From Roseomonas sp. OT10 (GTDB lineage: Bacteria; Pseudomonadota; Alphaproteobacteria; Acetobacterales; Acetobacteraceae): 64,000 nt of DNA. Under the pieces are notes generated by a model. It had not been told where the DNA came from. It made no database searches and saw nothing but the letters and a program-made list of their open reading frames with translations. The stretch covers positions 682,001 through 746,000 of the forward strand of contig NZ_CP087719.1 in the NCBI RefSeq assembly GCF_020991085.1. The letters run 5' to 3'. Below, piece after piece: positions 2,866 to 58,875 of the stretch. The position numbers and the translations under genes were made by a program. How positions within the stretch are numbered: position 1 is the stretch's first letter; each line of letters opens with the position of its first letter.

Positions 2866-4062
2866 GTGACCGCCACGCCCCCCGTGCCGGCCGTGACCCG
2901 GCCGGCTCTCTGGCTGATGATGCTGTGCAGCTTCTGCGGCACGCTGGCCATGCACATGCTGGTCCCGGCCCTGCCGGAGGCGGGGCGCGCGCTGCAGGCC
3001 GGGGCGGCCACCATGCAGATGACCGTCAGCCTCTACATGGCAGGGCTGGCGATCGGGCAACTCTTCTACGGCCCGCTTTCGGACCGCTTCGGACGGCGGC
3101 CGGTGCTGCTGGCGGGGCTGGGGGTGTACAGCCTCGGCGGGCTGGCGGCGACGCTGGCCCCCTCCGCCGGGATGCTGATCGGGGCGCGGCTGGTGCAGGC
3201 GCTGGGTGGCTGCGCCGGCCTGGCCCTGACCCGGGCCATGGTCCGCGACACCACCCCGATGGAGGAGGCAGCCTCCCGCCTCGCCCTGCTGAACATGGTG
3301 GTCGCGGTCGGACCGGCCGCGGCGCCGCTGCTGGGGGGCTTCCTGGCGGAGTGGCTGGGTTGGCGCTGGGTGCTGGCGACGACCCTGGCTCTCGGCGTGA
3401 CAGCCCTGGTCGCCGCCTTCTGGCGCCTGCCGGAGACCCGCCCGCCGGGTGGCGCGAACACCTCGCCCTCCCTGCGGGACTATGGCCAGTTGCTGCGCTC
3501 GCCGGTCTTCCTGGGCTTCACCATCGGCGGCGGCTGCGCCACCACCAGCATGTATGCCTTCCTGGCGGCGAGCCCCTTCATCGTGGTGGAGCAGATGCAC
3601 CGCCCGGTGCACGAGCTGGGGCTGTACTACCTGCTGCTGGTCGGCGGAACGTCGTTCGGCAACCTGCTGGCGGCGCGGCTGGTGCGGCCGATGGGCAGCG
3701 GGCGGCTGCTGCTGGCGGGCAGCCTGCTGGGACTGTCCGGGGCGCTGATGCTGCTGGGCGCGGCGCTGAGCGGCCATCTGCTGGTGCCGCTGGTGGTCGG
3801 GCCGATGCTGCTCTTCACCATCGGCGTCGGCATCGCGAGCCCGGTGGCGCTCACCCGCGCGGTCAGCGTCAACCCCCGGTTGATCGGCTCCGCCTCCGGG
3901 CTGTACGGCTTCAGCCAGATGGCGGTGGGGGCGGTCTGCACGTCCCTCGCAGGGCTGGGGACCAACCCGGCCCTGTCCAGCGCCGTGGTGCTGACGGGCG
4001 CGTCGCTGCTGGGCCTCGTCTGCTTCCTGACCGCATTGCGCTCCCGCCCCGCGGGGGCCTGA
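2866..4062 (+). CDS. MFS multidrug transporter, Bcr/CflA-like
   Basis: Inner-membrane drug/proton antiporter of the major facilitator superfamily (398 aa, about 12 hydrophobic segments). MFS motif A appears as GPLSDRFGRRPV at residues 69-80, and RLVQALGGCAGLALTRAMVRD matches the Bcr/CflA motif C region. The start is GTG 2866; no better ATG precedes the first helix. The stop codon TGA at 4060-4062 coincides with the left end of dispersed element copy A. Substrate is unknown; Bcr-like pumps export bicyclomycin, sulfonamides or cysteine. Confidence 0.87.
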   Translation: MTATPPVPAVTRPALWLMMLCSFCGTLAMHMLVPALPEAGRALQAGAATMQMTVSLYMAGLAIGQLFYGPLSDRFGRRPVLLAGLGVYSLGGLAATLAPSAGMLIGARLVQALGGCAGLALTRAMVRDTTPMEEAASRLALLNMVVAVGPAAAPLLGGFLAEWLGWRWVLATTLALGVTALVAAFWRLPETRPPGGANTSPSLRDYGQLLRSPVFLGFTIGGGCATTSMYAFLAASPFIVVEQMHRPVHELGLYYLLLVGGTSFGNLLAARLVRPMGSGRLLLAGSLLGLSGALMLLGAALSGHLLVPLVVGPMLLFTIGVGIASPVALTRAVSVNPRLIGSASGLYGFSQMAVGAVCTSLAGLGTNPALSSAVVLTGASLLGLVCFLTALRSRPAGA

Positions 4063-4479
4063 TAGGGACGGCGGGATGCCCTGATCCGTACCGGCGGGGT
4101 GCCCGTGGCCCGGGGGCAAGGCTCCGCCTCGCCCCCGTACCCCCACTCCGCCAGGACCCTGCGGGCCCTGGACCCGAAGGGCGCTGCCGCGGGACAGCCG
4201 GACACGGGGTCGAGGCGCCGAGGAGCATGGCTCCTAGGCGGGTACGGGGTCCGCCCCCGCTGACGCCTTCTGAAGCTTTATCCAGAGTCCCGCCTGTCCG
4301 AGCTCCGTCAGGGTTCAGCCCGTAGGCTGACGCCCACCCGAAGCGCCAGACTCCCAGCGGGGACCGGGGCCCGCTTGTGGCCCCGGCAGGGGAGGGTCTG
4401 GGAGGGGACGGCGTCCCCTCCCGGTCCCCCGCCAGAACACCGAGGGCGACAGGCCACGACATTCCGCTGGTCGGATAGG
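4060..4479 (+). repeat. Dispersed structured intergenic element, copy A
   Basis: First of five ~420-bp copies, filling most of the 556-bp gap between the MFS gene and the DUF2171 gene. It begins in the MFS stop codon (TGATAGGGACGGCGGGAT) and ends near 4479 with the inexact inverse. Internal hairpins: an AAGGC/GCCT-tipped G/C stem (4112-4136), CCAGG...CCTGG (4151-4171), CCGAGGAGC/GCTCCTAGG (4218-4238), CCGGGGCC...GGCCCCGG with loop CGCTTGT (4364-4386), and GGGAGGGGAC/GTCCCCTCCC (4400-4422). Frames differ from copy to copy, so it is not coding. The remaining 140 bp to the next gene shows nothing recognisable. Confidence 0.85.
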
Positions 4480-4619
4480 GGAGGGGCCAGGGCGAACGCC
4501 CGTGCGACGGGAACAAGCTTCGTGTGCGGGCGCATCCCGGGCAGCCCACGGCCGTTAACCGCCTGCCTGCGCCCCATGGCCGGAAGTTATGGGGCGGGCC
4601 GGCGGCAGGAGAGCAGGAC

Positions 4620-5980: not shown

Positions 5981-5993
5981 CCGGCGCCCCGCC

Positions 5994-8537: not shown

Positions 8538-8576
8538 TCCGCGCGGCGGCGCCCGGCCGCCGGGCGCGCGGCACGT

Positions 8577-10761: not shown

Positions 10762-11808
10762 ATGCAGACCGTCCCCAACCGGCCCGGACCACCCGTGGCC
10801 GCACCGCTGGCGGCCGGCGACCTCGTCCTGGTGACAGGGGGATCGGGCTTCCTGGGCTCGGCGGTGCTGCGGGCGCTGCGGGGCCGGGGGCTGCGGGTGC
10901 GCGCCCTGGTCCGCCCCACCAGCCCGCGCGCCAACCTCGAGGGGCTGGGCTGCGAGATCGTCGAGGGCGACCTGACCGATGCGGCCTCCCTCCCCGCCGC
11001 GCTGCGCGGCGCCCGGCACCTGTTCCACGTCGCGGCGGATTACCGCCTCTGGGCCCCCGATCCCGCGGCGATCCTGCTGGCCAATGTCGAGGGGACGCGG
11101 AACCTGATGCGCGCCGCCCTGGCCGCCGGGGTCGAGCGGGTCGTCCATACCAGCAGCGTCGCGACCCTGCGCGTCGCCGGGGCGGCCGGCCCGGTGGACG
11201 AGACCGCCCCCGCCGCCCCCGACCAGGCCATCGGCGCCTACAAGCGCAGCAAGACCCTGGCCGAGCGGCTGGTGGAGGAGATGGTGGCGCGGGAGGGGCT
11301 GCCGGCGGTGATCGTGAATCCCTCCACCCCGGTCGGGCCGCGCGACATCCGGCCGACGCCGACGGGGCGGATCATCCTGGACGCGGCGCGCGGCAGGATC
11401 CCCGCCTTCGTCGAGACGGGGCTGAACATCGCCCATGTGGACGACATCGCCGCGGGCCACCTGCTGGCGCATGAGCGTGGCCGCGCCGGCGAGCGCTACA
11501 TCCTGGGCGGCGAGAACCTGCCGCTGCGGCTGCTGCTGGCGGAGATCGCGCAGCTGACGGGCCGTCCCGCCCCGCGGCTGCGGCTGCCGCGCCGGCCGCT
11601 CTTCCCTCTGGCCTATGGCGCGGAGGCGGTGGCGCGCGTCACGGGCAAGGAGCCGCTGCTGACGGTGGACGGGTTGCGCATGGCGGGCCATCGCATGTTC
11701 TTCACCTCGGCCAAGGCCGAGCGGGAGCTGGGCTACCGCGCGCGCCCGGCGCGGGAGGGCGTGGCCGATGCGCTCGCCTGGTTCCGCGGCGCGGGCTACC
11801 TGGCATGA
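10762..11808 (+). CDS. hpnA: Hopanoid-associated sugar epimerase HpnA
   Basis: NAD(P)-dependent short-chain (extended SDR) epimerase/reductase of 348 aa, placed in hopanoid loci and thought to act on the sugar or side-chain of extended hopanoids. The nucleotide-binding motif is TGGSGFLGSAVLRAL near residues 27-41; the active-site motif YKRSK follows TSSVATLRV and DETAP. The C-terminus carries GYRARPAREGVADALAWFR as in HpnA. ATG 10762 is the first codon compatible with the fold; the frame upstream is noise. It overlaps hpnB by ATGA (4 bp), so the two are translationally coupled. Confidence 0.88.
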   Translation: MQTVPNRPGPPVAAPLAAGDLVLVTGGSGFLGSAVLRALRGRGLRVRALVRPTSPRANLEGLGCEIVEGDLTDAASLPAALRGARHLFHVAADYRLWAPDPAAILLANVEGTRNLMRAALAAGVERVVHTSSVATLRVAGAAGPVDETAPAAPDQAIGAYKRSKTLAERLVEEMVAREGLPAVIVNPSTPVGPRDIRPTPTGRIILDAARGRIPAFVETGLNIAHVDDIAAGHLLAHERGRAGERYILGGENLPLRLLLAEIAQLTGRPAPRLRLPRRPLFPLAYGAEAVARVTGKEPLLTVDGLRMAGHRMFFTSAKAERELGYRARPAREGVADALAWFRGAGYLA

Positions 11809-12965
11809 GCCTCCCCGGCCTCGACCTCGTCCTGGCGCTCGCCGCCCTGGCCGTCTGGCTGGTGCTGCTGCTCGGGCGCGGTGGCTTCTGGCTGGCCCGC
11901 GAGCGCGACGACCGCGACGCGCCGCCGCCGCCCGCGCGCTGGCCCGCCGTGGTGGCGGTGGTGCCGGCCCGCGACGAGGCGGACGTGATCGCCCGCTCGG
12001 TCGGCAGCCTGCTGCGGCAGGACTATCCCGGCCCCTTCCGCGTCGTGCTGGTCGATGACGGCAGCGCGGACGGCACGGCGGCCGTGGCCCGGGCGGAGGC
12101 GGCGGCGGCCGGGGCGGAGGGCCGGCTGGAGGTGCTGGCGGGCGCGCCGCTGCCGCGCGGCTGGACGGGCAAGCTCTGGGCGATGCGCCAGGGGGTGGAG
12201 CGGGCGGGGGCGGCACCGGCCTACATCCTGTTCGCCGATGCCGATATCGGCCACGCCCCGGACAACCTGCGTGCCCTGGTGGCGCGGGCGGAGGCGGGCC
12301 GGCACGCCATGGTCTCGCTGATGGCGCAGCTGTCCTGCGCGACCCCGGCGGAACGCTTCCTGATCCCGGCCTTCGTTTTCTTCTTCCAGATGCTCTACCC
12401 CTTCGCCTGGGTCGCCGACCCGCGCCGCCGCACCGCCGCCGCCGCCGGGGGCTGCATGCTGGTGCGGCGCGAGGCGCTGGAGCATGCCGGCGGCATCGAC
12501 TCCATCCGCGCCGACATCATCGACGACTGCGCCCTCGGCCGGCGGATGAAGGCCCAGGGGCCCGTCTGGCTCGGCCTGACCCGGCGGGCGCGCAGCCTGC
12601 GGCCCTATGGCGGCGTGGCGGAGATCGGGCGGATGATCTCCCGCTCCGCCTATGCCCAGCTCGGCTACTCGCCCTGGCTGCTGGCGGGGACGCTGGCCGG
12701 AATGGCGCTGGTCTACCTGGCCCCGCCGCTCCTCGCCCTGTTCGGCACCGGCGCGGCGCGCTGGTGCGGGCTGGCCGCCTGGGGACTGATGGCGCTGGCC
12801 TTCCAGCCGATGCTGCGCTTCTACCGCGTCTCGCCGCTCTGGGGCCTCGCCCTGCCGGTCATCGGCGCGGCCTACACGCTGTTCACCCTGCAATCCGCCT
12901 GGCAGGTCTGGCGCGGGCGCGGTGGCATGTGGAAAGGGCGCGCCCAGGCCATGGCAGCGGACTGA
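11805..12965 (+). CDS. hpnB: Hopanoid-associated glycosyltransferase HpnB
   Basis: Membrane-anchored family-2 glycosyltransferase of 386 aa. One N-terminal helix is followed by a GT-A core with VVAVVPARDEADVIARSV (about residues 47-64), FRVVLVDDGSADGTA, a DXD-like FADADIGHAP and AAGGCMLVRREAL. Two to three C-terminal helices follow. HpnB is thought to modify extended hopanoids. It is coupled to hpnA by a 4-bp overlap. Its TGA at 12963-12965 is also the first triplet of dispersed element copy B. Confidence 0.88.
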   Translation: MSLPGLDLVLALAALAVWLVLLLGRGGFWLARERDDRDAPPPPARWPAVVAVVPARDEADVIARSVGSLLRQDYPGPFRVVLVDDGSADGTAAVARAEAAAAGAEGRLEVLAGAPLPRGWTGKLWAMRQGVERAGAAPAYILFADADIGHAPDNLRALVARAEAGRHAMVSLMAQLSCATPAERFLIPAFVFFFQMLYPFAWVADPRRRTAAAAGGCMLVRREALEHAGGIDSIRADIIDDCALGRRMKAQGPVWLGLTRRARSLRPYGGVAEIGRMISRSAYAQLGYSPWLLAGTLAGMALVYLAPPLLALFGTGAARWCGLAAWGLMALAFQPMLRFYRVSPLWGLALPVIGAAYTLFTLQSAWQVWRGRGGMWKGRAQAMAAD

Positions 12966-13382
12966 TACGAACGGCGGGATACCCTGATCCGGGCCGGACT
13001 GGCACCCGCTCCCCGGGGGCAAGGCTCTACCTCGCCCCCGATACCCCCACTCCGCCAGGACCCTGCGGGCCCTGGACCCATTTGGCGCTGCCGCGGGACA
13101 GCCTGCGACGGGGTCGCGACGCCGAGGAGCTTGGCTCCTCGGCGGGACCGGCCGCCGCAATCGCTGACGCCTTCAAAGCTATTCTAGAGTCCCGCCTGTC
13201 CGCGCGCCGTCAGGGTTCAGCCCGGAGGTTGACACCTACCACGGAGCACCAGACTCCCAGCGGGGTCCGGGGCCCGCTTGTGGCCCCGGCAGGGGAGGGT
13301 CTGGGAGGGGACGGCGTCCCCTCCCGGTCCGCCGCCGGACCACGGCAGCACGACGGGTCACGACATCCCGCCGTCGGTATGA
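12963..13382 (+). repeat. Dispersed structured intergenic element, copy B
   Basis: Best-preserved copy, between the convergent hpnB and cobD genes. The left end TGATACGAACGGCGGGAT and the right end read inward (CATACCGACGGCGGGAT) form imperfect terminal inverted repeats. Its third hairpin is perfect: GCCGAGGAGC (13121-13130), loop TTG, GCTCCTCGGC (13134-13143). The CGCTTGT-loop hairpin and the final GGGAGGGGAC hairpin match copy A closely. The 97 bp between 13383 and the cobD stop holds nothing recognisable. Confidence 0.88.
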
Positions 13383-19549: not shown

Positions 19550-19710
19550 CGCGCCGCCAGCGCTTGCCTGCGCCTCCGGTTTCTCCCTGGAGTCCTGGCT
19601 GTCGGCACCCTCCCCGGGCCGCGCCCGCAGGCTGGCAACAGCCGCGGGGTGTGCCGACCAAGTGCGCGGCGTCGGCCGGCGGGTGGGCGGCGCCCGCCCG
19701 GCCCTGTCGG

Positions 19711-20129
19711 ACCGACGGATGGATGACCTGACCCGTGGTGCTGTGGTGTTCGGGCGTCGGACCGGGAGGGGACGCCGTCCCCTCCCAGACCCTCCCCTGC
19801 CGGGGCCACAAGCGGGCCCCGGTCCCCGCTGGGAGTCTGGTGCTTCCGGTAGGCGTCCGCCTCCGGGCTGAACCTTGACGGACCGCGGACAGGCGGGACT
19901 CCGAAAAAGCTTCAGAAGGCGTCAGCGAAAGCCGACCCCGTACCCGCCGAGGAGCCAAGCTCCTCGGCGCTGTGACCCCGTCGCAGTCATCTGCGCGGCA
20001 GCGCCGATCGGGTCCAGGGCCCGCAGGGTCCTGGCGGAGTGGGGGTACGGGGGCGAGGCAGCGCCTTGCCCCCGGGCCACGGGCGCACCTCGTGCCGGCA
20101 CGGATCAGCGCATCGCGCCATCCGTATCA
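19711..20129 (-). repeat. Dispersed structured intergenic element, copy C
   Basis: Inverted copy between convergent genes. Its left end (CTGATACGGATGGCGCGAT on the minus strand) begins exactly in the TGA stop of the enolase-superfamily gene at 20127-20129. All five hairpins are present; the GCCGAGGAGC stem has loop CAA and the terminal GGGAGGGGAC stem has loop GCC. The right boundary near 19711 is set by similarity to copies B and D. The 161 bp between the CorC-like stop (19549) and this copy shows nothing recognisable. Confidence 0.85.
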
Positions 20130-21287: not shown

Positions 21288-21377
21288 CCCGTTCCCTCCC
21301 GGCGGGCGGCGCAGCGGACCTATTCCCCCGCCGGCCGCCATCGGGTGGAATGCTAGCCGGGGCAGGGGGGCAGGGCC

Positions 21378-42278: not shown

Positions 42279-42414
42279 CACGGCCCCGGCCGCCGCAACG
42301 GGGCCCGCAGAAGGCCCCGGCCCCGGGAAGGGAGACGGCCATCCGGGCCGGGGCCGATGCTGGCCCGGCTTCTCCGATCACGGCACGATGCCGCCTGTCC
42401 CGAGGATCCCCGTC

Positions 42415-43428: not shown

Positions 43429-43436
43429 CGCGGGGC

Positions 43437-43455
43437 GGGGCAGCGGCGCTGCCCC
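43437..43455 (+). terminator. Hairpin downstream of Bug gene
   Basis: Inverted repeat GGGGCAGC-GGC-GCTGCCCC starting 9 bp after the Bug gene stop. The loop is 3 nt and the stem 8 bp, with further G/C pairing outside. It is a candidate 3' end structure; the T tract is absent. The next gene, the Lhr-type helicase, begins about 115 bp later on the same strand. Confidence 0.4.
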
Positions 43456-43570
43456 CTCCGCCCGGACAGGCTTCCGCACCCCCGGCAGGCCCGCCATCGC
43501 GGCGGGCATGGGGCGGGGGCCGCCCGCGACTCGCCAGCCGGCGCGACGGGTGCCATATCTCCCCACCTGC

Positions 43571-46123: not shown

Positions 46124-46136
46124 GGCGTGGCGCTGT

Positions 46137-46420
46137 CCCCCGGGTGGAAGGCTCTGCCTTCCCCCCGATACCCCCTATCCGCCAGGAAACTGAGTTTCCT
46201 GGACCTTCCATTCGTTCGCGCGTTCGGTCGGGGTCGCGCCGGAGGTCGATGACCTCCGGCGGGTTCGGCCGCCACGCTCGCTGCCCGAAAGATTCCTGCT
46301 TGGTGCTCCCTTTCGTCGAAGCCCGTTCCCTGGCCACGGGCACCCGACTCCCGCCGGGGGCCGGGGGCCGGCTCGCCCCCGGTGGAGGGGGTATCGGGGG
46401 AGGCAAAGCCTCCACCGGGG
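46137..46420. repeat. Diverged structured intergenic element F with ~36-bp terminal inverted repeats
   Basis: It occupies most of the 313-bp gap between the helicase and pdeM. Its ends are near-identical inverted repeats (46137-46175 and 46385-46420), each carrying an AAGGC or GAGGC hairpin followed by CCCGATACCCC. Its first internal hairpin, CCAGGAAAC-TGA-GTTTCCTGG (46182-46202), is the counterpart of copy A's CCAGGACCC-TGC-GGGCCCTGG. Its second, CGCCGGAGGTC-GAT-GACCTCCGGCG (46237-46261), corresponds to the GCCGAGGAGC stem. The stems are changed in sequence but keep pairing. Confidence 0.8.
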
Positions 46421-46436
46421 AAGGGGCACCCACGCC

Positions 46437-49371: not shown

Positions 49372-49434
49372 GCGGGGCCCCGGGGAAAGCGGCCCCCGCA
49401 ACCTTGCCGGGCCCGCAGCCCCGGTCCTGACCCC

Positions 49435-50448
49435 TTACGCGTCCGCCGGCAGGTCGAAGGCGTCGGGGTAGCCGAACAGGCCCACGGCGCCGCCGGTATG
49501 GACGAAGACCACGTTCTCCTCCGGCCCGAACTGGCCCTTGCCGATCAGGTCAATCAGCCCGGCCATGCCCTTGCCGGAATAGACGGGGTCGAGGAGCAGG
49601 CCCTCCTGCTCCGCCACCAGCCTCACCGCCTCCACCATGCCCCGGGTGGGGATGCCGTAGCCCTGGCCGACATAGTCGCAGTTCGCGCGCACCTGCTCGG
49701 CCCGCACCGTGCCGGGCGGCAGGCCGAGGTGGTCCGCCGTGCGCTGCGCCAGGGCCAGCACGTTCGCCTCCTGCCGCTCGCGGGGGGCGCGCACGCCGAT
49801 GCCCAGCACGGGGATACCGCTGTTCAGCCCGGCCAGCCCGGCCACCAGCCCCGCCTGGGTGCCGGCGCTGCCGGTCGCGTGCACCACATGGTCGATCCTC
49901 AGATCCATCGCCGCGGCCTGCGCCACCAGCTCCAGCGCCGCGGCCACGTAGCCCAGTGCGCCCACGGGGTTGGAGCCGCCGCCCGGGATCACGTAGGGCC
50001 GCCGGCCCTGGCGCCGCAGGTCCTCCGCCAGCGCCTCCATCTCCGCCTGCATGTCCGCGCCGCCGGGGCGGCGGGAGACGGTCGCGCCGTGCAGCTTGTC
50101 CAGCATCACGTTGCCGGACCGGGTATAGGCCGGGTCGGTGCTGCCGGTGCGGTCCTCCAGCAGCAGGTGGCAGGCGAAGCCCAGCTTCGCCGCCGCCGCC
50201 GCCGTCTGGCGGGCATGGTTGGACTGCGTCGCGCCCTGGGTGATGACGGTGTCGGCGCCCTGGGCCCGCGCATCGGCCATCAGGTATTCCAGCTTGCGGG
50301 TCTTGTTGCCGCCGGTGGACAGGCCGGTGCAGTCGTCGCGCTTGACCCAGAGCCGCGGCCCGCCGAGGTGGCGGGAGAGGTTCTCCATCGGCTCCAGGGG
50401 CGTGGGCAGGTGGCCCAGGCGGAGGCGCGGGAAGCGGGCGAGGTTCAT
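49435..50448 (-). CDS. D-cysteine desulfhydrase/L-cysteate sulfo-lyase family PLP protein
   Basis: PLP-dependent enzyme of 337 aa in the ACC deaminase/D-cysteine desulfhydrase family. The PLP lysine is Lys49 in [34 protein letters not shown] and [20 protein letters not shown] are conserved. The start [40 protein letters not shown] also closely resembles CuyA, which splits L-cysteate into pyruvate, sulfite and ammonia. Both assignments remain open. It is convergent with the metallophosphoesterase gene. Confidence 0.82.
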
Positions 50449-50633
50449 GGCGTTGGGTCTGACCTGGACGTCGGGCGGCGCAGGCTAGGCCAAGGGCCCC
50501 GCCGCGCCAACCGAGGCGGGGGCGGCCGCACCGGCCGGGCGGCATCCCCGTGCCGGGCCCGGACGCGCGGTGCCAGCGGGGCCATCCGCGCCGCACGGCC
50601 CATCCATCCCCCGCCTGCGCCGTTCAGCACCGC

Positions 50634-51167
50634 ATGCCCCTTTGCCGACGCGCCTGCCTCGCCGCCCTCCTGCCGCTTGCCGCCTGCGGCACCACCGCCG
50701 GGACCTTCGCGTCGCAGGGCCCGCCCTTCCGGCCGGAGCAGTTCTTCGCCGGGCGGCTGCGCAGCCAGGGCCTCTTCGCGAACCGCCTCGGCGCCATCGA
50801 CCGCTGGTTCACCGCGGAGCTGGAAGGGCGCTGGGACGGGCAGACCCTGACCTTCGACGAGACCTTCCACTACGAGGACGGCTTCACCGACCGGCGCCAC
50901 TGGGAGCTGCGGCGCATCGCCCCCGCCCGCTGGCGCGGCACGGCGACCGACGCGGTGGGCGAGGTGGCGGCGGAGGAGTCCGGCAACGCCTTCCACCTCC
51001 TCCATACCCTCGACATGCCGCGCGCCGACGGCAGCCGGCGCCGCCTGTCCTTCGACCAGTGGTTCGTGCGCGTCTCGGAGGAGGAGGCGCTGTCCCGCGC
51101 CGCCGTCTCCTGGCATGGGCTGGTGCAGGTCGGCACGGCCCAGGTCGCCTTCCGCCGCCTGGGCTGA
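50634..51167 (+). CDS. DUF3833 lipoprotein
   Basis: Predicted lipoprotein of 177 aa: MPLCRRACLAALLPLAAC with lipobox LAAC around Cys18, then a DUF3833 domain (FFAGRLRSQGLFANRLG, FHYEDGFTDRRHWELR). The family is membrane-anchored and of unknown function. ATG 50634 gives the lipobox; the longer upstream frame is proline/arginine noise. It lies 126 bp upstream of the HAD-ATPase fusion on the same strand. Confidence 0.84.
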   Translation: MPLCRRACLAALLPLAACGTTAGTFASQGPPFRPEQFFAGRLRSQGLFANRLGAIDRWFTAELEGRWDGQTLTFDETFHYEDGFTDRRHWELRRIAPARWRGTATDAVGEVAAEESGNAFHLLHTLDMPRADGSRRRLSFDQWFVRVSEEEALSRAAVSWHGLVQVGTAQVAFRRLG

Positions 51168-51293
51168 GCCGCCCGGGCACGCAACCGCCGGGCCCGCCGG
51201 GGCTTACCGCCCTGCGCGCCGGGCGCCGCCGTCACCGGGCCGGCGGCGGGCCGGGCTGCGCCAGGGACACGACGCTCGTCGTGCGGGCATGGG

Positions 51294-53048
51294 ATGCACT
51301 ACGTCGCGCTCGCGACCGACTACGACGGCACCATCGCGCATCACGGCGCCGTGGACGCCCCCACCCTGGAGGCGCTGGAACGCCTGCGCGCCGGGGCGCG
51401 GAAGCTGATCCTGGTGACGGGGCGCGAGCTGCCCGACCTGCTGCGGGTGATGCCGGATCTGTCCGTCTTCGACCTGGTGGTCGCGGAGAACGGCGCCCTG
51501 CTCTACCACCCGGAGACCAGGGAGGAGCGCCCGCTGGCCGAGCCGCCGCCGGAGCGCTTCGCCGAACGCCTGCGCGAGCTGGGGGTGGAGCCGCTCTCGG
51601 TCGGCCGCGTCATCGTCGCCACCTGGGAGCCCAACGAGACGGCGGTGCTCCAGGCGATCCGCGAGCTGGGGCTGGAGCTGCAGATCACCTTCAACAAGGG
51701 CGCGGTGATGGTGCTGCCGGGCGGCGTCACCAAGGCCTCCGGCCTGCGCGCGGCGCTGGAGGCGCTGGAGCTGTCGCCGCTGAACTGCGTCGCGGTCGGC
51801 GATGCCGAGAACGACATGGCGATGCTGGACTCCGTCGGCCTGCCGGTGGCGGTGGCCAATGCCCTGCCGTCCCTGCGGGAGCGCGTGGCGCTGGTCACGC
51901 GGGGCGAGCGCGGCGAGGGGGTGGCGGAGCTGGTCGACCGGCTGCTCGACACCGATCTGGCGGAGATCGACCTGGCGCCGGAGGGCATCCCCGAGGGCCC
52001 GGCGGCGCGGGAGCGGGTGGCGCTGGCCAAGCCGGAGGAAGGGCGCGTGCCCCTCCCGCTGGTGCCGCAGCGCGAGAGCCTGCTGCTGACCGGCCATTCC
52101 GGCGGCGGCAAGTCCACCCTGACCTTCGGCCTGCTGGAGCGGCTGCACGAGGCGGGGTTCCAGACCTGCATCCTCGACCCCGAGGGCGACTACGAGGGCA
52201 CCAGGGGCACGGTGATGGAGGGCGCGCCGGACGCCCCGCCCGACCCCGCCCGGGTGGTGGAGCTGCTGCGCCGGACCCAGAACGGGGTGGTGGTGAACAT
52301 GCTGGGCGTGAAGCTCGCGGATCGGCCGGCCTATCTCGCCGCCCTGCTGCCGGAGCTGATGGGGCTCCGCGCCCGCACCGGGCGGCCGCATGTCGTGGTG
52401 GTGGACGAGGCGCACCACATGCTGCCGGCGGATTTCGACCCCGGCGCCGCCGCCCTGCCGGGACGGCTCGAAGGCTTCCTGTTCATCACCATGCGGCCGC
52501 AACTGCTGACGCAGCGCGTGCTGGAGGGGATCGGGCGGATGCTGGTGGTGGGCGCCGAGCCCGGCGCCTCGCTGGCGGCCTTCTGCGAGGCGCGCGGCCT
52601 GCCCGCCCCCGGCGCGGTGCCGGGGATCGAGACGGGCCAGGCCCTCCTGCTGGACACCGCCGTGCTGGCGGAGGGCGGCGATCCCGCCGCGGCGGTGCGG
52701 CGGGTGGAGGTGATCCCGGGCACCGGCACGCGCCGCCGCCACCAGCGCAAGTACGCCGAAGGGAAGCTGCGCGACGACCTCAGCTTCTACTTCCGCGGCC
52801 CGGAGGGGCGGCTGAACCTGCGCGCCCACAACCTCACGCTGTTCGTGCAGATGGCCGAGGGGGTGGACGAGGAGACCTGGACCCACCACCGCCGCCAGGG
52901 GGACTACTCCCGCTGGATGGAGGCATGCGTGAAGGACGAGGAGCTGGCAGGCGAGGTCGCCCAGATCGAGGACAGCGAGGCCCCCTTCGAGGAGGCCCGG
53001 GCCGCGATCCGCGAGGCGATCGAGCGCCGCTACACCGCGCCCGGCTGA
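51294..53048 (+). CDS. HAD phosphatase fused to HerA/DUF87-like P-loop ATPase
   Basis: 584-aa fusion of two enzymes. Residues 1-225 are a Cof/HAD-IIB phosphatase with complete motifs: DYDGT (Asp9, Asp11), ILVTGRELP, a conserved Lys in TKASGLRAAL and GDAENDMAML. Residues about 250-470 form a P-loop ATPase: Walker A TGHSGGGKSTL (near 266-276), Walker B HVVVVDEAHHM (near 366-376) and a partial arginine-finger-like MRPQLLTQRV. The last 110 residues have an uncharacterised GPEGRLNLRAHNLTLF / GDYSRWM pattern. The substrate and target are unknown; the fusion is seen sporadically elsewhere in alphaproteobacteria, from memory. Confidence 0.85.
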   Translation: MHYVALATDYDGTIAHHGAVDAPTLEALERLRAGARKLILVTGRELPDLLRVMPDLSVFDLVVAENGALLYHPETREERPLAEPPPERFAERLRELGVEPLSVGRVIVATWEPNETAVLQAIRELGLELQITFNKGAVMVLPGGVTKASGLRAALEALELSPLNCVAVGDAENDMAMLDSVGLPVAVANALPSLRERVALVTRGERGEGVAELVDRLLDTDLAEIDLAPEGIPEGPAARERVALAKPEEGRVPLPLVPQRESLLLTGHSGGGKSTLTFGLLERLHEAGFQTCILDPEGDYEGTRGTVMEGAPDAPPDPARVVELLRRTQNGVVVNMLGVKLADRPAYLAALLPELMGLRARTGRPHVVVVDEAHHMLPADFDPGAAALPGRLEGFLFITMRPQLLTQRVLEGIGRMLVVGAEPGASLAAFCEARGLPAPGAVPGIETGQALLLDTAVLAEGGDPAAAVRRVEVIPGTGTRRRHQRKYAEGKLRDDLSFYFRGPEGRLNLRAHNLTLFVQMAEGVDEETWTHHRRQGDYSRWMEACVKDEELAGEVAQIEDSEAPFEEARAAIREAIERRYTAPG

Positions 53049-53209
53049 ACCCTGCCCTGCGCCGGCCGTTGGCCGGTCGGGCTCTCCCCCTCTTGCCCGG
53101 CGCCCGGAAACGCGCTCCGGGCAGCATCGCTCTGGCGCCGCTTCCCGAGCATCCTTGCATGGCCACCCGATTCCGGCTGGCCACGTCCCATTCCAGGCCG
53201 GATGACGCG

Positions 53210-54355
53210 ATGAACGCCCTGTCCCCCTCGCCCGAGACCCCCTGCCACGTCCTGGTGCTGCAGGGCGGCGGCGCCCTCGGCTCCTACCAGGCGGGAGTCT
53301 ACGAGGCGATGGTGGAGAACTGCCAACCGGTGGACTGGGTGGCGGGGATCTCGATCGGGGCGATCAACGCCGCGCTGATCGCCGGCAACCCGCCGGGCCG
53401 CCGGGTGGAGCGGCTGCGCGCCTTCTGGGAGGAGGTCTCCTCCGCCATCCTGGTGGAGCCGCCGCCCCTGGGCGCGCAGGGCCGGGCGCTGTTCAACGAG
53501 GCCAGCGCCGCCTGGATCGCCGCGGCGGGCGTGCCGGGCTTCTTCGCCCCGCGCTGGCCGCCCGCGCTGCTCCGGGCGCCCGGCACGCCCGGCGCGCTCA
53601 GCATCTACGACACGGCGCCGCTGCGCCGGACGCTGGAGCGGCTGGTCGACTTCGATCGGATCCGCGACGGGGGGATGCGCCTCAGCGTCGGGGCGGTGAA
53701 CCTGCGGACCGGCAACTTCACCTATTTCGACAGCCGGGAGACCCGGATCGGGCCGGAGCACATCATGGCCTCCGGCGCGCTGCCGCCGGGCTTCCCACCG
53801 GTGGAGATCGACGGCGAGGCGTACTGGGACGGCGGCATCGTCTCCAACACGCCGCTGCAATACGTTCTGGACGAGGAGCAGCGGCGCGACCTGACGGTGC
53901 TGCAGGTGGACCTGTTCAGCGCCCGCGGCCCCATGCCGCGCAGCCTGCCGGAGGTGATGGAGCGGGAGAAGGACATCCGCTACTCCAGCCGCACCCGGCT
54001 GAACACCGATGCGCAGATGAAGATCCAGCGCGCCAAGAGCCTGGTGCGGCGCCTGCTCGCCCGCCTGCCGGACGGTGTGCTGGAGGCGGAGGACGCCGCC
54101 TTCCTGGCGGAGATGAGCCACGCCAACCGCGTGACGGTGGCGCACCTGATCTACCGTCGGAAGCAGCACGAGCGCAGCTCGAAGGACTACGAGTTCTCCC
54201 GCCTCACCATGCTCGACCACTGGGATGCCGGCCGCGACGACATGCGCCGCGCCCTGGAACGGCCGGACTGGCAGGGCCGCTGCCGGGCGGAGAGCGGCAT
54301 CGCCGTCTTCGACCTGAACGCCCTGACCGCCGCGGAGCGCGCCGGGGCGGATTGA
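53210..54355 (+). CDS. Patatin-like phospholipase (with DUF3734 region)
   Basis: Serine lipase of 381 aa. The oxyanion loop is LQGGGALGSYQAG (residues 18-30), the nucleophile Ser48 lies in GISIGAINAAL, and the catalytic Asp in DGGIVSNTPLQYV near residue 207. The C-terminal YSSRTRLNTDAQMKIQRAKSLVRRLLARLP matches DUF3734. ATG 53210 is preferred; ATG 53159 gives a 17-residue extension. Its TGA at 54353-54355 abuts element copy D. It may act on bacterial lipids or poly(hydroxyalkanoate)-associated substrates, which is not determinable. Confidence 0.88.
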   Translation: MNALSPSPETPCHVLVLQGGGALGSYQAGVYEAMVENCQPVDWVAGISIGAINAALIAGNPPGRRVERLRAFWEEVSSAILVEPPPLGAQGRALFNEASAAWIAAAGVPGFFAPRWPPALLRAPGTPGALSIYDTAPLRRTLERLVDFDRIRDGGMRLSVGAVNLRTGNFTYFDSRETRIGPEHIMASGALPPGFPPVEIDGEAYWDGGIVSNTPLQYVLDEEQRRDLTVLQVDLFSARGPMPRSLPEVMEREKDIRYSSRTRLNTDAQMKIQRAKSLVRRLLARLPDGVLEAEDAAFLAEMSHANRVTVAHLIYRRKQHERSSKDYEFSRLTMLDHWDAGRDDMRRALERPDWQGRCRAESGIAVFDLNALTAAERAGAD

Positions 54356-54775
54356 TCCCGACGGCGAGGCTGACCTGCCCTGTCGTGCTGTGGCGTTCGG
54401 GCGGGGACCGGGAGGGGACGCTGTCCCCTCCCAGACCCTCCCCTGCCGGGGCCACAAGCGGGCCCCGGTCCCCGCTGGGAGTCTGGTGCTGTGCGGTTGC
54501 CGTCAGTCTCCGGGCTGATCCCTGACGGAGCGCGGACAGGCGGGACTCTGAATAAAGCTTCAGAGCGCGTCAGCGAGTGCGGAGGCCGGTCCCGCCGAGG
54601 AGCATGGCTCCTCGGCGCCTCGACCCCGTGTCCGGCTGTCCCGCGGCAGCGCTGATCGGGTCCAGGGCCCGCAGGGTCCTGGCGGAGTGGGGGTACGGGG
54701 GCGAGGCAGAGCCTTGCCCCCGGGCCACGGGCGCATCCCGCGCCGGCACGGATCAAGGCATCCCGCTGCCCATAT
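54353..54775 (-). repeat. Dispersed structured intergenic element, copy D
   Basis: Minus-strand copy immediately after the patatin stop: the right end reads TGATCCCGACGGCGAGG from the stop codon onward, so this copy meets a stop with its right end rather than its left. It carries all five hairpins, the terminal GGGAGGGGAC stem with a CTGT-like loop variant and the CCGAGGAGC stem with loop ATG. The left end is near 54775. The following 150 bp up to idnD holds only the single module at 54856. Confidence 0.85.
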
Positions 54776-54855
54776 GAGGCGGGCGGCGCGTGCGGACGCG
54801 GCCGTCCCGGGGAGGCCGTCTCCTCGGCATGCCGAAGCGCCTGTGAAGGGGGGGC

Positions 54856-54880
54856 GGGGGCAAGGCGGAGCCTCTCCCCC
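54856..54880. repeat. Solitary AAGGC/GCCT hairpin module
   Basis: Arms GGGGGCAAGGC and GCCTCTCCCCC flank a GGA loop, matching the first hairpin of the dispersed elements but lying alone, 80 bp outside copy D. It is 46 bp from the idnD stop (54926), again on the 3' side of a gene. It suggests that the element is modular and that this hairpin can persist or insert by itself. Confidence 0.55.
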
Positions 54881-54925
54881 CGGCGCCCGCCACGGGACGC
54901 AGCGGCCGGGCGGGGAGCCCCGCGG

Positions 54926-55960
54926 CTACAGCGCCAGTTGCACCTTCATCGCGCGGGACCGGTCGCTGGCGAGGTCGAAGGCGCGGATGGCCTCCGCGAG
55001 CGGCACGACCTCCGTCAGCAGGGGGGAGACGTCGATGGCGCCCGAGGCAAGGAAGCCCACGGCCCAGGCGAACTCCTCGTGGAAACGGAAGGTGCCGCGC
55101 AGGGTGATCTCCTTGGCGACCAGGGTGCTGAGCGGCAGGGGGACATCCCCGCCCGTGCCGATCTGCACCACGGTCGCGCCGGGGCGGGCGGCGGACAGGG
55201 CGTCCGCCAGGCCGGGGCCGCTGCCCGAGGCCTCGAAGACCACGTCGAAGTGGCCCTTGTCGGCGCGGAAGCGGTCCATCGCCGATGGCTCGGCCGCGGT
55301 GTTCAGCGCCTGCGCCGCGCCCAGGCGGCGGGCGAGGGCGAGGGGGGAATCGGCGATGTCGGTCACCACCACCTCGCGCGCCCCGGCATGGCGGGCGACC
55401 AGCAGGGTGAGCATCCCGATGGGGCCCACCCCCACCACCAGCACGCGCTGGCCCATCAGCGGCCCCGCCTGCCGCGCCGCGTGCAGGCAGACGGAGAGCG
55501 GCTCGGCGAAGGCGGCCGTCTCCGCCGCGACGCCCTCGGGCACCGGCACAGCCTGGCTGGCGTCGCAGACCAGCGCCTCGCGGAAGCCGCCCTGCACGTG
55601 CGGGAAGCGCATGGCCGAACCGTAGAAGCGCATGTCCAGGCAGTGGTTCTGCATCCCCGCCTGGCAGTAGCGGCAGGTGCCGCAGGGCAGGGAGGGGTTC
55701 ACCGCCACCAGCTGGCCGGGCCGCACCCGCGTCACGCCGTCGCCGACCGCCAGCACCTCGCCGGCGACCTCGTGCCCCAGCGCCATGGGCTGCTGCAGCC
55801 GCACCGCGCCGAACCCGCCCTTGTGGTAGTAGTGCAGGTCCGAGCCGCAGATGCCGCCGGCCCGGATCCGGACCGCGACCTCGCCCGGACCAGGCTCGGC
55901 CAGCGCCATCTCCTCGATGCGCAGGTCGTGCGGGGCGTGCAGTACGGCGGCCTTGACCAT
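54926..55960 (-). CDS. idnD: L-idonate 5-dehydrogenase
   Basis: Zinc medium-chain dehydrogenase of 344 aa. Catalytic zinc ligands are Cys38 (GGICGSDLHYYHKGG), His63 and Glu64; structural zinc cysteines are 93, 96, 99 and 107 in LPCGTCRYCQAGMQNHC. NAD binding is in VLVVGVGPIGMLTLLVARH. The sequence and its partner match E. coli IdnD, which oxidises L-idonate to 5-ketogluconate. It diverges from the idnO-like gene with an operator-like palindrome between them. Confidence 0.88.
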   Translation of the reverse strand: MVKAAVLHAPHDLRIEEMALAEPGPGEVAVRIRAGGICGSDLHYYHKGGFGAVRLQQPMALGHEVAGEVLAVGDGVTRVRPGQLVAVNPSLPCGTCRYCQAGMQNHCLDMRFYGSAMRFPHVQGGFREALVCDASQAVPVPEGVAAETAAFAEPLSVCLHAARQAGPLMGQRVLVVGVGPIGMLTLLVARHAGAREVVVTDIADSPLALARRLGAAQALNTAAEPSAMDRFRADKGHFDVVFEASGSGPGLADALSAARPGATVVQIGTGGDVPLPLSTLVAKEITLRGTFRFHEEFAWAVGFLASGAIDVSPLLTEVVPLAEAIRAFDLASDRSRAMKVQLAL

Positions 55961-56012
55961 GGCTGTCTCCTTCTGGCGGTCGGCGGAGCCGGCCCGTTTG
56001 CCTTGGCATCAC

Positions 56013-56024
56013 GTTACCGGTAAC
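56013..56024. promoter_or_regulatory. GntR/IdnR-type operator candidate
   Basis: Perfect 12-bp palindrome GTTACCGGTAAC in the gap between divergent idnD and idnO. It closely resembles the E. coli GntR/IdnR binding consensus (LacI-family sites with TTACCGGTAA-like cores), so control by a LacI-type gluconate/idonate repressor is likely. No such repressor gene is in the window. The site continues into a second partial repeat, ACCGGTGG. Confidence 0.65.
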
Positions 56025-56088
56025 CGGTGGCCATCGCCAGGACCCGCCCCAGCGGCTGGGCGGGGGGCGGGCAGGAGATGGCACGGGC

Positions 56089-56850
56089 ATGGAGATCTTC
56101 GACCTGGCGGGGCGACGCGCCCTGGTCACCGGTTCCGGCCAGGGAATCGGGCTGGCCCTGGCCCGGGCGCTGTCCTCGGCGGGGGCGACGGTGGTGCTGA
56201 ACGGCCGCGACGCCGCCAAGCTGGACCGCGCGGCGGCGCTGCTGCGCGAGGGCGGGGCGAAGGTGGAGACGGCGGCCTTCGACGTCACCGACGCGGCCGC
56301 CGTGACCGAGGGCGTGGCCCGCGTCGAGGACCGGGCCGGCCCGATCGACATCCTGGTGAACAACGCCGGCATCCAGCGCCGCACGCCGCTGGAGGACTTC
56401 CCCGAGGAGACCTGGCACGAGATCGTGCGCGCCAACCTCGACAGCGTCTTCTTCGTGGCCAAGGCCGTGGCGCGCCACATGATCCCGCGCGGGCGCGGCA
56501 AGATCGTCAACATCTGCTCGGTGCAGAGCGAGCTGGGGCGGCCGACCATCGCCCCCTACACGGCGACCAAGGGCGCGGTGAAGATGCTGACCAAGGGCAT
56601 GTGCGCCGACTGGGCGAAGCACGGGTTGCAGGTGAACGGCCTCGGCCCCGGCTACTTCGCGACGGAGATGAACAAGGCCCTGGTCGAGAATCCGGAATTC
56701 TCCGACTGGCTGTGCAAGCGCACGCCCGCCGGACGCTGGGGCAAGGTGGAGGAGTTGGGCGGCGCGGCCGTCTTCCTGTGCTCCGCGGCCTCGGACTTCG
56801 TGAACGGGCAGATCCTCTACGTGGATGGCGGCCTGACCGCCGTGGTGTAG
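56089..56850 (+). CDS. idnO: Gluconate 5-dehydrogenase-like SDR
   Basis: Short-chain dehydrogenase of 253 aa that interconverts 5-ketogluconate and gluconate. Cofactor motif TGSGQGIGLALARAL is near residues 15-29, NNAG lies in ILVNNAGIQRR, and the catalytic Ser-Tyr-Lys is spread over NICSVQSELGRPTIAPYTATKGAV. It diverges from idnD by 128 bp, an arrangement typical for the idn system. The terminal GGLTAVV is in place. Confidence 0.88.
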   Translation: MEIFDLAGRRALVTGSGQGIGLALARALSSAGATVVLNGRDAAKLDRAAALLREGGAKVETAAFDVTDAAAVTEGVARVEDRAGPIDILVNNAGIQRRTPLEDFPEETWHEIVRANLDSVFFVAKAVARHMIPRGRGKIVNICSVQSELGRPTIAPYTATKGAVKMLTKGMCADWAKHGLQVNGLGPGYFATEMNKALVENPEFSDWLCKRTPAGRWGKVEELGGAAVFLCSAASDFVNGQILYVDGGLTAVV

Positions 56851-57010
56851 CGGGGGCGGCCCCGCCGGGCCGCCGGCGCGGCAGGGCAGGGTCGTGCGGG
56901 CGGGTCATGCCGCGGTGCAGCGATCTGCTCTAACCTGCCGGCCGCATGCTGCCTGACCCGACCCGCCGCGGCGCCGAGCCGCGCCATCCTCTCCCCGCGG
57001 AGCCCCGGCG

Positions 57011-58381
57011 GTGACGCCGGCCGCGGACGGGCTGCCGGTCCCCCGCCGCCACTGGGCCACCCTGGCGGCGGCGCTGGCCATCTGCATGGCGGTGATCGAC
57101 GGCTCGATCGCCAATGTCGCCCTGCCCACCCTGGCGCAGGAGCTGCAGGTCTCCCCGGCCAGCTCCATCTGGGTGGTGAACGCCTATCAGCTGATCATCA
57201 CCGTGCTGCTGCTGCCGATGGCCTCGCTGGGGGACATCTACGGCTATCGCCGGGTCTACATGGTCGGGCTGGCGGTCTTCGTCCTCGCCTCGCTCGCCTG
57301 CGCCCTGTCCGGCTCGCTTCCCATGCTGGTCGCGGCGCGGGTGGTGCAGGGGGTGGGGGCGGCGGCGCTGATGAGCACCAATGCCGCGCTGGTGCGCTTC
57401 ACCTATCCGCGCGACCAGCTCGGCCGCGGCATCGGCATGATCGCGCTGGTGGTCGCCACCTCCTCCGCCCTGGGGCCCACGGTGGCGAGCGGCATCCTGG
57501 CCGTCGCCTCCTGGCCCTGGCTCTTCGCGGTGAACATCCCGCTCGGCCTGGCGGCGATGGTGGTGGGATGGCGCAGCCTGCCGGAGAGCCCGCGGTCCGG
57601 CCAGCGCTTCGACCTGGCCAGCGCCGTGCTCAGCGCCCTGGCCATCGGCCTGCTGGTCGGCACGCTGGACGGGGTAGCCCATGGCGCCTCGGCACCGGTC
57701 GTCGCCCTGCAACTCCTCGTCTCCCTGCTGGCGGGGGTGCTGCTGGTGCGGCGGCAGCGGCAGGAGAGGGCGCCGCTGCTGCCCCTCGACCTGCTGCGCA
57801 TCCCCATCTTCGCGCTGTCCATGGGGACCTCCGTCTGCTCCTTCCTGGCGCAGATGCTGGCCTATGCCGCGCTGCCCTTTCACCTGCAGACGGGGCTGGG
57901 GCTCAGCGCGGTGGAGACGGGGCTGATGATGACGCCCTGGCCCGTGGCGACCGCCCTGACCGCGCCGCTCGCCGGCCGGCTGGCGGACCGCTACCACGCC
58001 GGGATGCTGGGTGGGCTGGGCCTCGCCATCTTCTCCCTGGGGCTGGCCAGCCTCGCCCTGCTGCCGGACCAGCCGGGCGCCTTCGACATCGGCTGGCGCA
58101 TGGCGCTGGCGGGCATGGGCTTCGGCCTGTTCCAGTCGCCCAACAACCGCACCATCGTCTCCTCGGCGCCGCGCGAACGCAGCGGCGCCGCGGGCGGCAT
58201 GCTCTCCACCGCCCGGCTGTTGGGCCAGACCACCGGCGCCGCCCTGGTCGCGCTGGTGCTGGCCCGGAGCGGGGCGAACGGGCCGCTCATCGCCCTCGGC
58301 CTCGGCGCCGTCGCGGCCGCGGTGGCGGCCGGGGTCAGCAGCCTGCGCCTCCTGACCAGCCGGCCGACGCCCGGCCGATAG
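57011..58381 (+). CDS. MFS efflux transporter, DHA2 family
   Basis: Drug/proton antiporter of 456 aa with about 14 hydrophobic segments. Hallmarks are MAVIDGSIANVALPTLAQELQ (start of helix 1), GDIYGYRRVYMVGLAVFVLAS (motif A) and VQGVGAAALMSTNAALVRFTYP (motif C). The start is GTG 57011, the first codon that leaves a normal N-terminus. It resembles SmvA/EmrB relatives. A partner membrane-fusion gene is absent. Its stop precedes element copy E, which starts about 70 bp later. Confidence 0.88.
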   Translation: MTPAADGLPVPRRHWATLAAALAICMAVIDGSIANVALPTLAQELQVSPASSIWVVNAYQLIITVLLLPMASLGDIYGYRRVYMVGLAVFVLASLACALSGSLPMLVAARVVQGVGAAALMSTNAALVRFTYPRDQLGRGIGMIALVVATSSALGPTVASGILAVASWPWLFAVNIPLGLAAMVVGWRSLPESPRSGQRFDLASAVLSALAIGLLVGTLDGVAHGASAPVVALQLLVSLLAGVLLVRRQRQERAPLLPLDLLRIPIFALSMGTSVCSFLAQMLAYAALPFHLQTGLGLSAVETGLMMTPWPVATALTAPLAGRLADRYHAGMLGGLGLAIFSLGLASLALLPDQPGAFDIGWRMALAGMGFGLFQSPNNRTIVSSAPRERSGAAGGMLSTARLLGQTTGAALVALVLARSGANGPLIALGLGAVAAAVAAGVSSLRLLTSRPTPGR

Positions 58382-58447
58382 GCGCCGCATCGAGGTGGAG
58401 CATGGCGCCGCCGGAGGCGGTTCGCCTCACCCCGCCGGACTGGACTG

Positions 58448-58875
58448 TGGACGGCGGATGCGCCGGCGCGGAGGGCGCCCGTGGCCCGGGGGCAAGGCGC
58501 TGCCTCGCCCCCGATACCCCCACTCCGCCAGGACCCTGCGGGCCCTGGACCCGAAGAGTGCTGCCGCGGGACAGCATGATACGGGGTCACGGCGCCGAGG
58601 AGCCACGCTCCTCGGCGAGTACAGTGTCCGAACTTGCTGACGCCTACTGAGCTTCTTTCGGAGTCCCGCCTGTCCACGTTCCGTCAGGGTTCAGCCCGCA
58701 GACTGACACCCACCGGAAGCGTCAGACTCCCAGCGAGGACCGGGGCCCGCTTGTGGCCCCGGCAGGGGAAGGTCTGGGACGGGGATCGACGCACGGCGTC
58801 GATGCCGCAGGCCGACGTCCCCTCCCGGTCCGACGCCGGACCACGGCAGCACGACGGGCGTTATCGGGTCGCGGG
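58448..58875 (+). repeat. Dispersed structured intergenic element, copy E (with insertion)
   Basis: Most diverged of the five copies, between the convergent MFS and mgtE genes. It lacks about 10 bp at its left end but retains the AAGGC hairpin, CCAGG...CCTGG, GCCGAGGAGC-CAC-GCTCCTCGGC and CCGGGGCC-CGCTTGT hairpins. The final GGGA...TCCC hairpin carries a 28-bp insertion at its tip that is itself a hairpin: ATCGACGC (58785-58792), ACG, GCGTCGAT (58796-58803). The right end lies about 18 bp from the mgtE stop. Confidence 0.82.

What the first reader, a model, noticed from the sequence alone, without database searches (positions are those of the whole stretch)
4060..58875. A family of ~420-bp structured intergenic elements, five full copies in 64 kb
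Copies at 4060-4479, 12963-13382, 19711-20129 (inverted), 54353-54775 (inverted) and 58448-58875 share the same order of five hairpins and imperfect terminal inverted repeats (ACGGCGGGAT-like at both ends). They are noncoding, and the density is high for one window. They are MITE-like in their ends but carry far stronger internal stems than most. I cannot match them to a named repeat family.
Basis: seen in the sequence. Interest (0 to 1): 0.8.

Follow-up and report, generated by a model that had tools for sequence, protein, structure and literature searches.

The report
Paired-hairpin mobile repeats at gene ends
About two hundred copies of a small non-coding DNA element, built from two mirror-image pairs of hairpins, sit in this bacterium's chromosome where genes end, and they look like mobile DNA that may act as a two-way stop sign between neighbouring genes.

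Summary
Confirmed and extended. The five ~415-bp copies are real; a sixth, diverged pair lies at 46139-46421. The genome holds 216 matches to one core hairpin. Each copy is an inward-facing mirror pair of a ~67-nt double-hairpin half-module (h1-ACCCCC-h2) around a variable middle. In this species the pair has ~17-bp terminal inverted repeats and a 3-bp TNA duplication (identical on both sides in 41 of the 70 copies, out of 109, with both ends readable; 0-4 of 70 at shifted offsets). So it is MITE-like mobile DNA; no parent transposase was found. Of 109 copies, 79 lie between convergent and 30 between tandem genes, none between divergent ones; in 400 kb of evenly spaced DNA they fill 10 of 46 convergent, 4 of 229 tandem and 0 of 50 divergent junctions. 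The half-module occurs in 15 of 15 genomes of the genus, 15 of 60 of the family, and only in this genome of a 115-genome class sample. Its stems covary across genera (233 double-change cells, 63 shuffled). It resembles REP/BIME repeats without their tags or RAYT transposase. Likely role: bidirectional 3'-end terminator/insulator; inferred, not shown.

The parts
4063..4475 (+). Copy 1. Left TGA 4060-4062 is the stop codon of the MFS gene 2866-4062; right triplet TAG 4476-4478 (duplication worn)
   Evidence: Pfam MFS_1
12966..13379 (+). Copy 2. TGA duplication at 12963-12965 (stop codon of the glycosyltransferase gene 11805-12965) and 13380-13382; CobD/CbiB gene converges from the right
19710..20126 (-). 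Copy 3 (inverted) between convergent corC-like gene 18656-19549 and enolase-superfamily gene 20127-21827 (its stop codon is the flanking TCA 20127-20129); other triplet TCG, worn
54356..54774 (-). Copy 4 (inverted). TGA duplication at 54353-54355 (stop codon of the patatin-like + gene ending 54355) and 54775-54777; dehydrogenase gene 54926-55960 converges
58448..58875 (+).
46139..46421 (+). Sixth, diverged pair; these terminal repeats not seen; 15 nt after the stop of the gene ending 46123 and 15 nt before the gene called at 46437 (tandem junction); absent at the orthologous junction of three sister species
4111..4137 (+). h1, outer hairpin of the left half-module (copy 1)
4151..4171 (+). h2, inner hairpin of the left half-module; C-rich spacer before it
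4216..4240 (+). h3, central hairpin (stem nearly invariant, loop variable in this species)
4306..4332 (+). h4, weaker central hairpin, read from the sequence by eye
   Evidence: sequence
4364..4386 (-). h5, inner hairpin of the right half-module (mirror of h2)
4400..4422 (-). h6, outer hairpin of the right half-module (mirror of h1)
54810..54883 (-). Weak extra half-module beside copy 4
   Evidence: E 0.0041

Best explanation
These are copies of a non-autonomous mobile DNA element whose cargo is an inward-facing pair of double-hairpin modules. SHOWN: terminal inverted repeats and TNA target duplication in this species, 216 core matches, mirror-pair geometry, stem covariation across genera, placement at gene 3' ends with a large excess at convergent junctions. 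INFERRED: the elements entered at TNA (often a TGA stop codon, which the duplication leaves intact), lost their mobilising enzyme, and were kept at gene ends because each module, read inward by the gene beside it, puts the same h1-ACCCCC-h2 structure at that transcript's 3' end. The pair would thus work as a two-way transcription end / insulator, keeping convergent RNA polymerases from reading into each other. Because no T-tract follows the stems where I scanned, termination would be of the U-less or Rho-assisted kind rather than classical intrinsic.
For: Mobility: 70 of 109 copies have both ends within 5 edits; 41 of the 70 have identical TNA triplets on both sides, against 0-4 at shifted offsets; among 48 with TNA on both sides 41 match, shuffled mean 21.4, highest 33 in 10,000 shuffles. 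The two duplication-centre columns show the strongest linkage of all column pairs more than 30 apart (r2 0.44). Geometry: inward in 21 of 21 own pairs (window plus 20 regions; the right half of copy 5 was added), 5 of 5 in evenly spaced sister DNA and 15 of 17 in named genera. Placement: 109 copies: 79 convergent, 30 tandem, 0 divergent; 400 kb outside the window: pairs in 10 of 46 convergent, 4 of 229 tandem, 0 of 50 divergent junctions, convergent vs tandem P 4e-6. Structure kept: stems diverge 1.2%, rest 14.3%, terminal repeats 19.3%; 16 cells with double changes that restore pairing, 0.56 expected; across genera 96.2% of cells paired, 20 of 21 pairs with double changes.
Against: No expression data. 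No T-tract: none of the 3 terminator-like hits in 42000-61900 lies in the elements there (copies 1-3 not scanned). Sites turn over: the 46139 pair is absent at the orthologous junction in three sisters; the gene end beside copy 5 is occupied in two of three sisters, so no single site is shown to need it. Non-Watson-Crick cells show no G-U excess (16 G-T, 16 A-C of 990), unlike tRNA stems (14 and 3 of 240), which does not favour a sense-RNA role. Of 20 unpaired half-modules in named loci, 8 face away from the nearer gene end (for several a weak partner is visible by eye). Variation outside stems is mosaic, linkage fading within ~30 bp, so recombination between copies could homogenise stems without selection. 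The left and right terminal repeats of one copy are scarcely more complementary than those of different copies (10.92 vs 10.76 of 17; 79 of 2000 shuffles as high).
Confidence: 0.5

Rival explanations
1. Purely selfish MITE. The elements have no use to the cell; they survive only where they do no harm (between gene 3' ends), and stems stay alike because the transposition machinery or recombination between copies needs or copies them.
For: Terminal repeats, target duplication, copy number; mosaic variation with linkage gone within ~30 bp; private variants differ only about twofold between stems and the rest (0.57% vs 1.09%; 100 of 109 copies); site turnover.
Against: Terminal repeats, the part a transposase needs, are the most worn (19.3%), stems the least (1.2%). 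The same mirror-pair geometry and 3'-end placement recurs in other genera, where I saw no such terminal repeats by eye. Best pairwise identity of 109 copies is 93%, so no recent burst explains uniform stems.
Confidence: 0.28
2. DNA-level palindrome element: the arms work as extruded or single-stranded DNA hairpins (gyrase, nucleoid-protein, replication or polymerase-collision sites at gene ends), and template switching keeps arms matched.
For: Changes are nearly all Watson-Crick on both strands; G-T and A-C cells equal (16 and 16 of 990), tRNA control 14 and 3 of 240 (ratio P 0.03, G-T rate P 0.0006). Long near-perfect central palindromes in some copies. That supercoils meet at convergent junctions is recalled knowledge.
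Against: The test rests on few cells, and own copies alone give 22 G-T and 16 A-C; GC-rich RNA stems might avoid G-U as well; the tRNA control has 14 cells misplaced or unpaired. No binding data.
Confidence: 0.17
3. A branch of RAYT-mobilised REP/BIME repeats.
For: Inverted pairs, high copy number, location after genes and at convergent junctions match the description of REPs (PMC3733652, passages read).
Against: No Y1 transposase (PF01797) in this genome and in only 1 of 11 element-bearing genomes; no GTAG tag (2 of 109 left, 0 of 109 right modules); three-base duplication and terminal repeats point to a DDE-type enzyme (recalled).
Confidence: 0.05

Closest known systems
REP / BIME / REPIN repeats (GTAG- and CGTC-tagged palindromes)
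   Same: High copy, palindromic units often in opposite orientation, downstream of genes, convergent and tandem junctions preferred (PMC3733652, passages)
   Different: Each half is a 67-nt double hairpin, not a 20-40-bp palindrome; no GTAG tag; no RAYT gene; terminal repeats with TNA duplication in this species; few G-T pairs
MITEs of TNA-duplicating insertion sequences (IS5-family groups; the family link is recalled, not from a call)
   Same: Short, non-coding, terminal inverted repeats, 3-bp duplication, many copies
   Different: No parent transposase with these ends among the loci scanned; the core is a paired-hairpin module that exists elsewhere in the family without these ends
Bidirectional intrinsic terminators
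   Same: Hairpins between convergent genes, mirror symmetry
   Different: No T-tract after the stems where scanned; ~300 bp with five to six stems; repeated as a dispersed family

Membership tests
MITE | terminal inverted repeats | tested here: met
   70 of 109 copies have both ends within 5 edits of the consensus
MITE | target-site duplication | tested here: met
   identical TNA on both sides in 41 of 70; 0-4 of 70 at shifted offsets
MITE | non-coding, high copy number | tested here: met
MITE | parent element with the same ends and a transposase | tested here: inconclusive
   no such ends framing a transposase in 60 loci, some the same place (30 of 34 PF01609 rows in this genome, 30 of 51 PF13586 rows in four genomes); other transposase families not searched
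REP/BIME | GTAG or CGTC tag at the palindrome base | tested here: not met
   GTAG/CTAC in 2 of 109 left and 0 of 109 right modules; CGTC/GACG in 1 of 109 left modules; present in 107 of 109 right modules, where the consensus has it inside h6
REP/BIME | RAYT (Y1) transposase in the genome | tested here: not met
   0 in G000; 1 of 11 element-bearing genomes
REP/BIME | inverted pairs placed 3' of genes | tested here: met
Intrinsic terminator | GC-rich stem followed at once by a T-tract | tested here: not met
   3 hits in 42000-61900, mean 2.9 in shuffles, none within the three pairs there; copies 1-3 not scanned
Intrinsic terminator | transcript ends at the site | not testable with these tools
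   no RNA data
Rfam families | match at gathering score | tested here: not met
   0 in the window; 10 weak matches for copy 1, microRNA families and one viral element, all far below gathering scores

The most novel reading that the evidence does not exclude
A family-wide (Acetobacteraceae) class of mobile, two-way gene-end elements, unrelated to REP/RAYT, that fills about a fifth to a quarter of a genome's convergent junctions. Its mirrored modules are kept in step as DNA palindromes by recombination between copies, and in this species they were packaged into a MITE that inserts into stop codons without destroying them.
Probability: 0.3. Interest if true: 0.8.

Novelty: new variant of a known kind. 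Interest (0 to 1): 0.6.

Why it matters
If the elements end or insulate transcription, a mobile repeat has rewired a large share of one genome's gene ends (10 of 46 convergent junctions in evenly spaced DNA), which would let one test whether selfish DNA supplies bacterial terminators. It also gives a good system, many near-identical stems with free-floating linkers, for telling RNA-level from DNA-level palindrome maintenance. The covariance model could help annotate Roseomonas-type genomes.

Tried and rejected
Whole-element RNA gene: the fold of copy 1 is modestly better than shuffles (z -3.5, 1 of 100 shuffles as good) and no promoter-like site was found in 42000-61900 (a weak test at this GC); not pursued. 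RAYT origin: set aside. Parent IS search with PF01609 and PF13586: no element ends framing a transposase; the one strong match (L123/L339, the same place) is an element copy beside an IS. Plasmid collection with copy 1: no match (near records may be left out there). Copy 2's right neighbour (CobD/CbiB, window 13480-14931) searched in seven congeners: strong matches in three; synteny covers only 13485-15469, on the far side of the element, and no module lies in the three loci fetched, so it gave no usable empty site. The idea that stem conservation proves selection after insertion was weakened. Terminal repeats in sisters: this species' end profiles give no significant hit in 798 kb of sister DNA; two near-identical G011 copies carry a look-alike end, read by eye. 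One search gave an earlier, looser duplication count (38 of 43); one search replaces it. One search timed out without output; done another way. tRNA bracket parsing failed; redone with fixed acceptor and T stems (20 of 26 tRNAs; 14 of 240 cells are other mismatches). The h6 pair offsets were wrong; one search replaces them. Junction counts with the window included were 14 of 54, 6 of 259 and 0 of 59; since the window was chosen for its copies, without it is used. Papers: PMC3733652 passages; the rest seen as search listings only. No description of this family appears in those listings; subscription journals are mostly outside that library.
Full report
WHAT IS THERE. The window is G000:C1:682001-746000 of a 5.69-Mb, three-contig genome. 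Its closest named relatives by the corC protein are Roseomonas-type Acetobacteraceae (Caldovatus, Roseomonas, Pseudoroseomonas, best segments 70-75% identical, where records of the window's own genome may be left out). A 28-base core matches 216 times in the genome with up to 3 mismatches, 105 forward and 111 reverse, none for the reversed control. If each is ~416 bp, that is about 1.7% of the chromosome's length. The 86 module matches scored all lie on the chromosome, none on the two smaller contigs (chance 0.4% from length alone).

ANATOMY. I aligned 109 copies from this genome. From the left: TNA triplet, ~17-bp terminal repeat, 30-40 variable bases, hairpin h1, a C-rich spacer (TACCCCCACTCCG), hairpin h2, variable bases, central hairpin h3, a T-rich stretch (four T in a row in 63 of 100 copies), weak h4, then h5, spacer, h6, and the inverted terminal repeat. 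Read from the right, h6-spacer-h5 is the same module as h1-spacer-h2. So the element is an inward-facing mirror pair. Ends: of 109 copies 70 have both ends within 5 edits; 48 of these have TNA on both sides and 41 are identical (TCA 21, TGA 19, TTA 1), shuffled mean 21.4, highest 33 in 10,000; at offsets of 3 to 9 bases either way 0 to 4 of 70 match. The other 39 copies were not used for this. The base before the duplication is mostly C, the base after it mostly G. In 34 of 85 left and 29 of 81 right flanking genes that run into the element, the stop codon ends exactly at the terminal repeat.

PLACEMENT. A simple codon-score gene caller places all 109 copies: 79 convergent, 30 tandem, 0 divergent. 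A stricter flank score resolved both sides of 71: 60 convergent, 11 tandem, 0 divergent; 35 had one side resolved (a 3' end each time) and 3 neither. In 20 evenly spaced 20-kb regions (400 kb, 345 genes) there are 46 convergent, 229 tandem and 50 divergent junctions; 14 of the 15 pairs there could be placed, 10, 4 and 0; three unpaired halves fall at one convergent and two tandem junctions. In named relatives pairs begin between 11 nt inside and 65 nt after a gene end, apart from one right half called 50 nt inside a gene; of 17 pairs 11 are tandem, 3 convergent, none divergent, 3 unresolved on one side.

CONSERVATION. Divergence across 109 copies is 1.2% in 100 stem columns, 2.0% and 3.3% in the two spacers, 11.9% in loops, 14.3% elsewhere and 19.3% in the terminal repeats. 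Best pairwise identity is 93%, mean 84%: no young copies among these. Of the stem cells that depart from consensus, 16 are double changes restoring a Watson-Crick pair (0.56 expected), 6 double changes to a mismatch, 22 single G-T, 16 single A-C, 33 other single, 3 single changes that repair a mismatched consensus. Variants outside stems are mosaic: linkage falls to background beyond ~30 bp, and the strongest distant linkage is between the two centres of the target duplication. Private variants are 0.57% in stems and 1.09% elsewhere (100 of 109 copies). Left and right terminal repeats of a copy are scarcely more alike than between copies. Hence homogenisation by recombination between copies is a live alternative to selection for stem uniformity.

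RELATIVES. Three sister species (G003, G006, G011; 73-75% identical at the CobD gene) carry homologues along most of the body, with different but matched stem sequences (33 aligned). In sister loci partly chosen for hits, 35 of 35 adjacent module pairs face inward, out of 87 module hits; in evenly spaced sister DNA (400 kb) 5 of 5, with one unpaired half. Half-module alignment A2 (28 sequences): 91.6% of cells paired, 12 of 21 pairs with double changes, 70 such cells against 23.7 shuffled; the number of further pair types, 18, is below the shuffled mean of 21.1. In 80 named loci (1.36 Mb) there are 40 matches at E 0.01; 55 at E 0.3 were aligned: 96.2% paired, 233 double-change cells against 63.4, 20 of 21 pairs (this alignment is fitted to the model and leans towards it). 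54 of those 55 went into the context analysis (one overlapping weak hit left out): 17 pairs, 15 facing inward, and 20 unpaired halves, 12 of them facing inward from a gene end and 8 not. For this genome one search used 46 hits: the 47 less two weak hits overlapping a module on the other strand, plus the right half of copy 5.

PRESENCE AND ABSENCE. I printed the stretch after corC for 21 of the 80 named loci. L217, L222 and L246 hold a pair, with matched changes in h2-type stems between them, while L184 and L178 have a short junction without it; this is read by eye. The window's sixth pair (46139-46421) is absent at the orthologous junction in G003, G006 and G011; the 3' end of the MFS gene beside copy 5 carries a pair in G003, at least a half in G006 (the sequence has a gap there) and none in G011. 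Elements therefore come and go.

RNA OR DNA. Among 990 cells of named modules there are 16 G-T and 16 A-C cells. A sense-RNA constraint would tolerate G-T rather than A-C; tRNA acceptor and T stems in the same DNA show 14 and 3 of 240. In A2 the counts are 2 G-T and 30 A-C, 24 of the latter in two columns; in own copies 22 and 16, with 18 of the G-T in h6. No consistent G-U excess exists, so structure seems kept on both strands. This fits DNA palindromes, or transcripts of both strands.

MECHANISM. Steps shown: mobile-type ends, mirror geometry, gene-end placement, stem covariation. Steps inferred: entry by a TNA-targeting transposase now absent or unrecognised; retention as two-way transcription ends. 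The design argument is that each convergent transcript meets the same module in the same orientation. The absence of a T-tract where scanned argues for U-less or Rho-assisted ending; whether transcripts stop there is untested.

KNOWN KINDS. PMC3733652 (passages) describes REPs as predominantly between unidirectional and convergent ORFs, in many families close together in opposite orientation, with G-T pairing of stem residues taken as a sign of transcription, and says CGTC repeats are missing from Acetobacteraceae. The present elements share placement and pairing but not tag, size, wobble or RAYT. No match was found in Rfam or in the paper listings. I therefore file them as a new variant of the REP/MITE kind, not as members of REP.

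Noticed in passing
L257 8955-9169 and L258 833-1047 (own genome): A shorter class of pair with a ~60-bp near-perfect central palindrome; the two copies' central arms differ by matched changes on both sides (by eye).
   Followed up: partly
window 54810-54883: Weak extra half-module next to copy 4, as if a second element had been cut down there.
   Followed up: no
window 58448-58875: Copy 5's last hairpin carries a 28-bp insert that is itself palindromic in part.
   Followed up: no
G000 contig C2: The second contig is dense in DDE_Tnp_1 transposase genes (9 of 12 equally scoring 285-aa copies, plus others), yet none of the 86 element modules scored lies on it.
   Followed up: partly
L053 (G000:C1:1031200-1036200): One element has lost its left half and a transposase gene lies close beside it, suggesting an insertion into the element.
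   Followed up: partly
L367, L368, L369: The sister-species junction orthologous to window 46124-46436 holds a different conserved stretch (around TTGCGACAGGATGAACGGATGAGATT), perhaps regulatory.
   Followed up: no
sister loci: Several sister-species pairs share outer ends like CCGGCGTTGCGCTGTCCC on one side and GGCGTTGCGCTTCGTGGC on the other, perhaps another kind of terminal repeat.
   Followed up: no
L180 15315-15620 (Acetobacteraceae bacterium AT-5844): An element of the same layout in a named relative with quite different stem sequences.
   Followed up: partly
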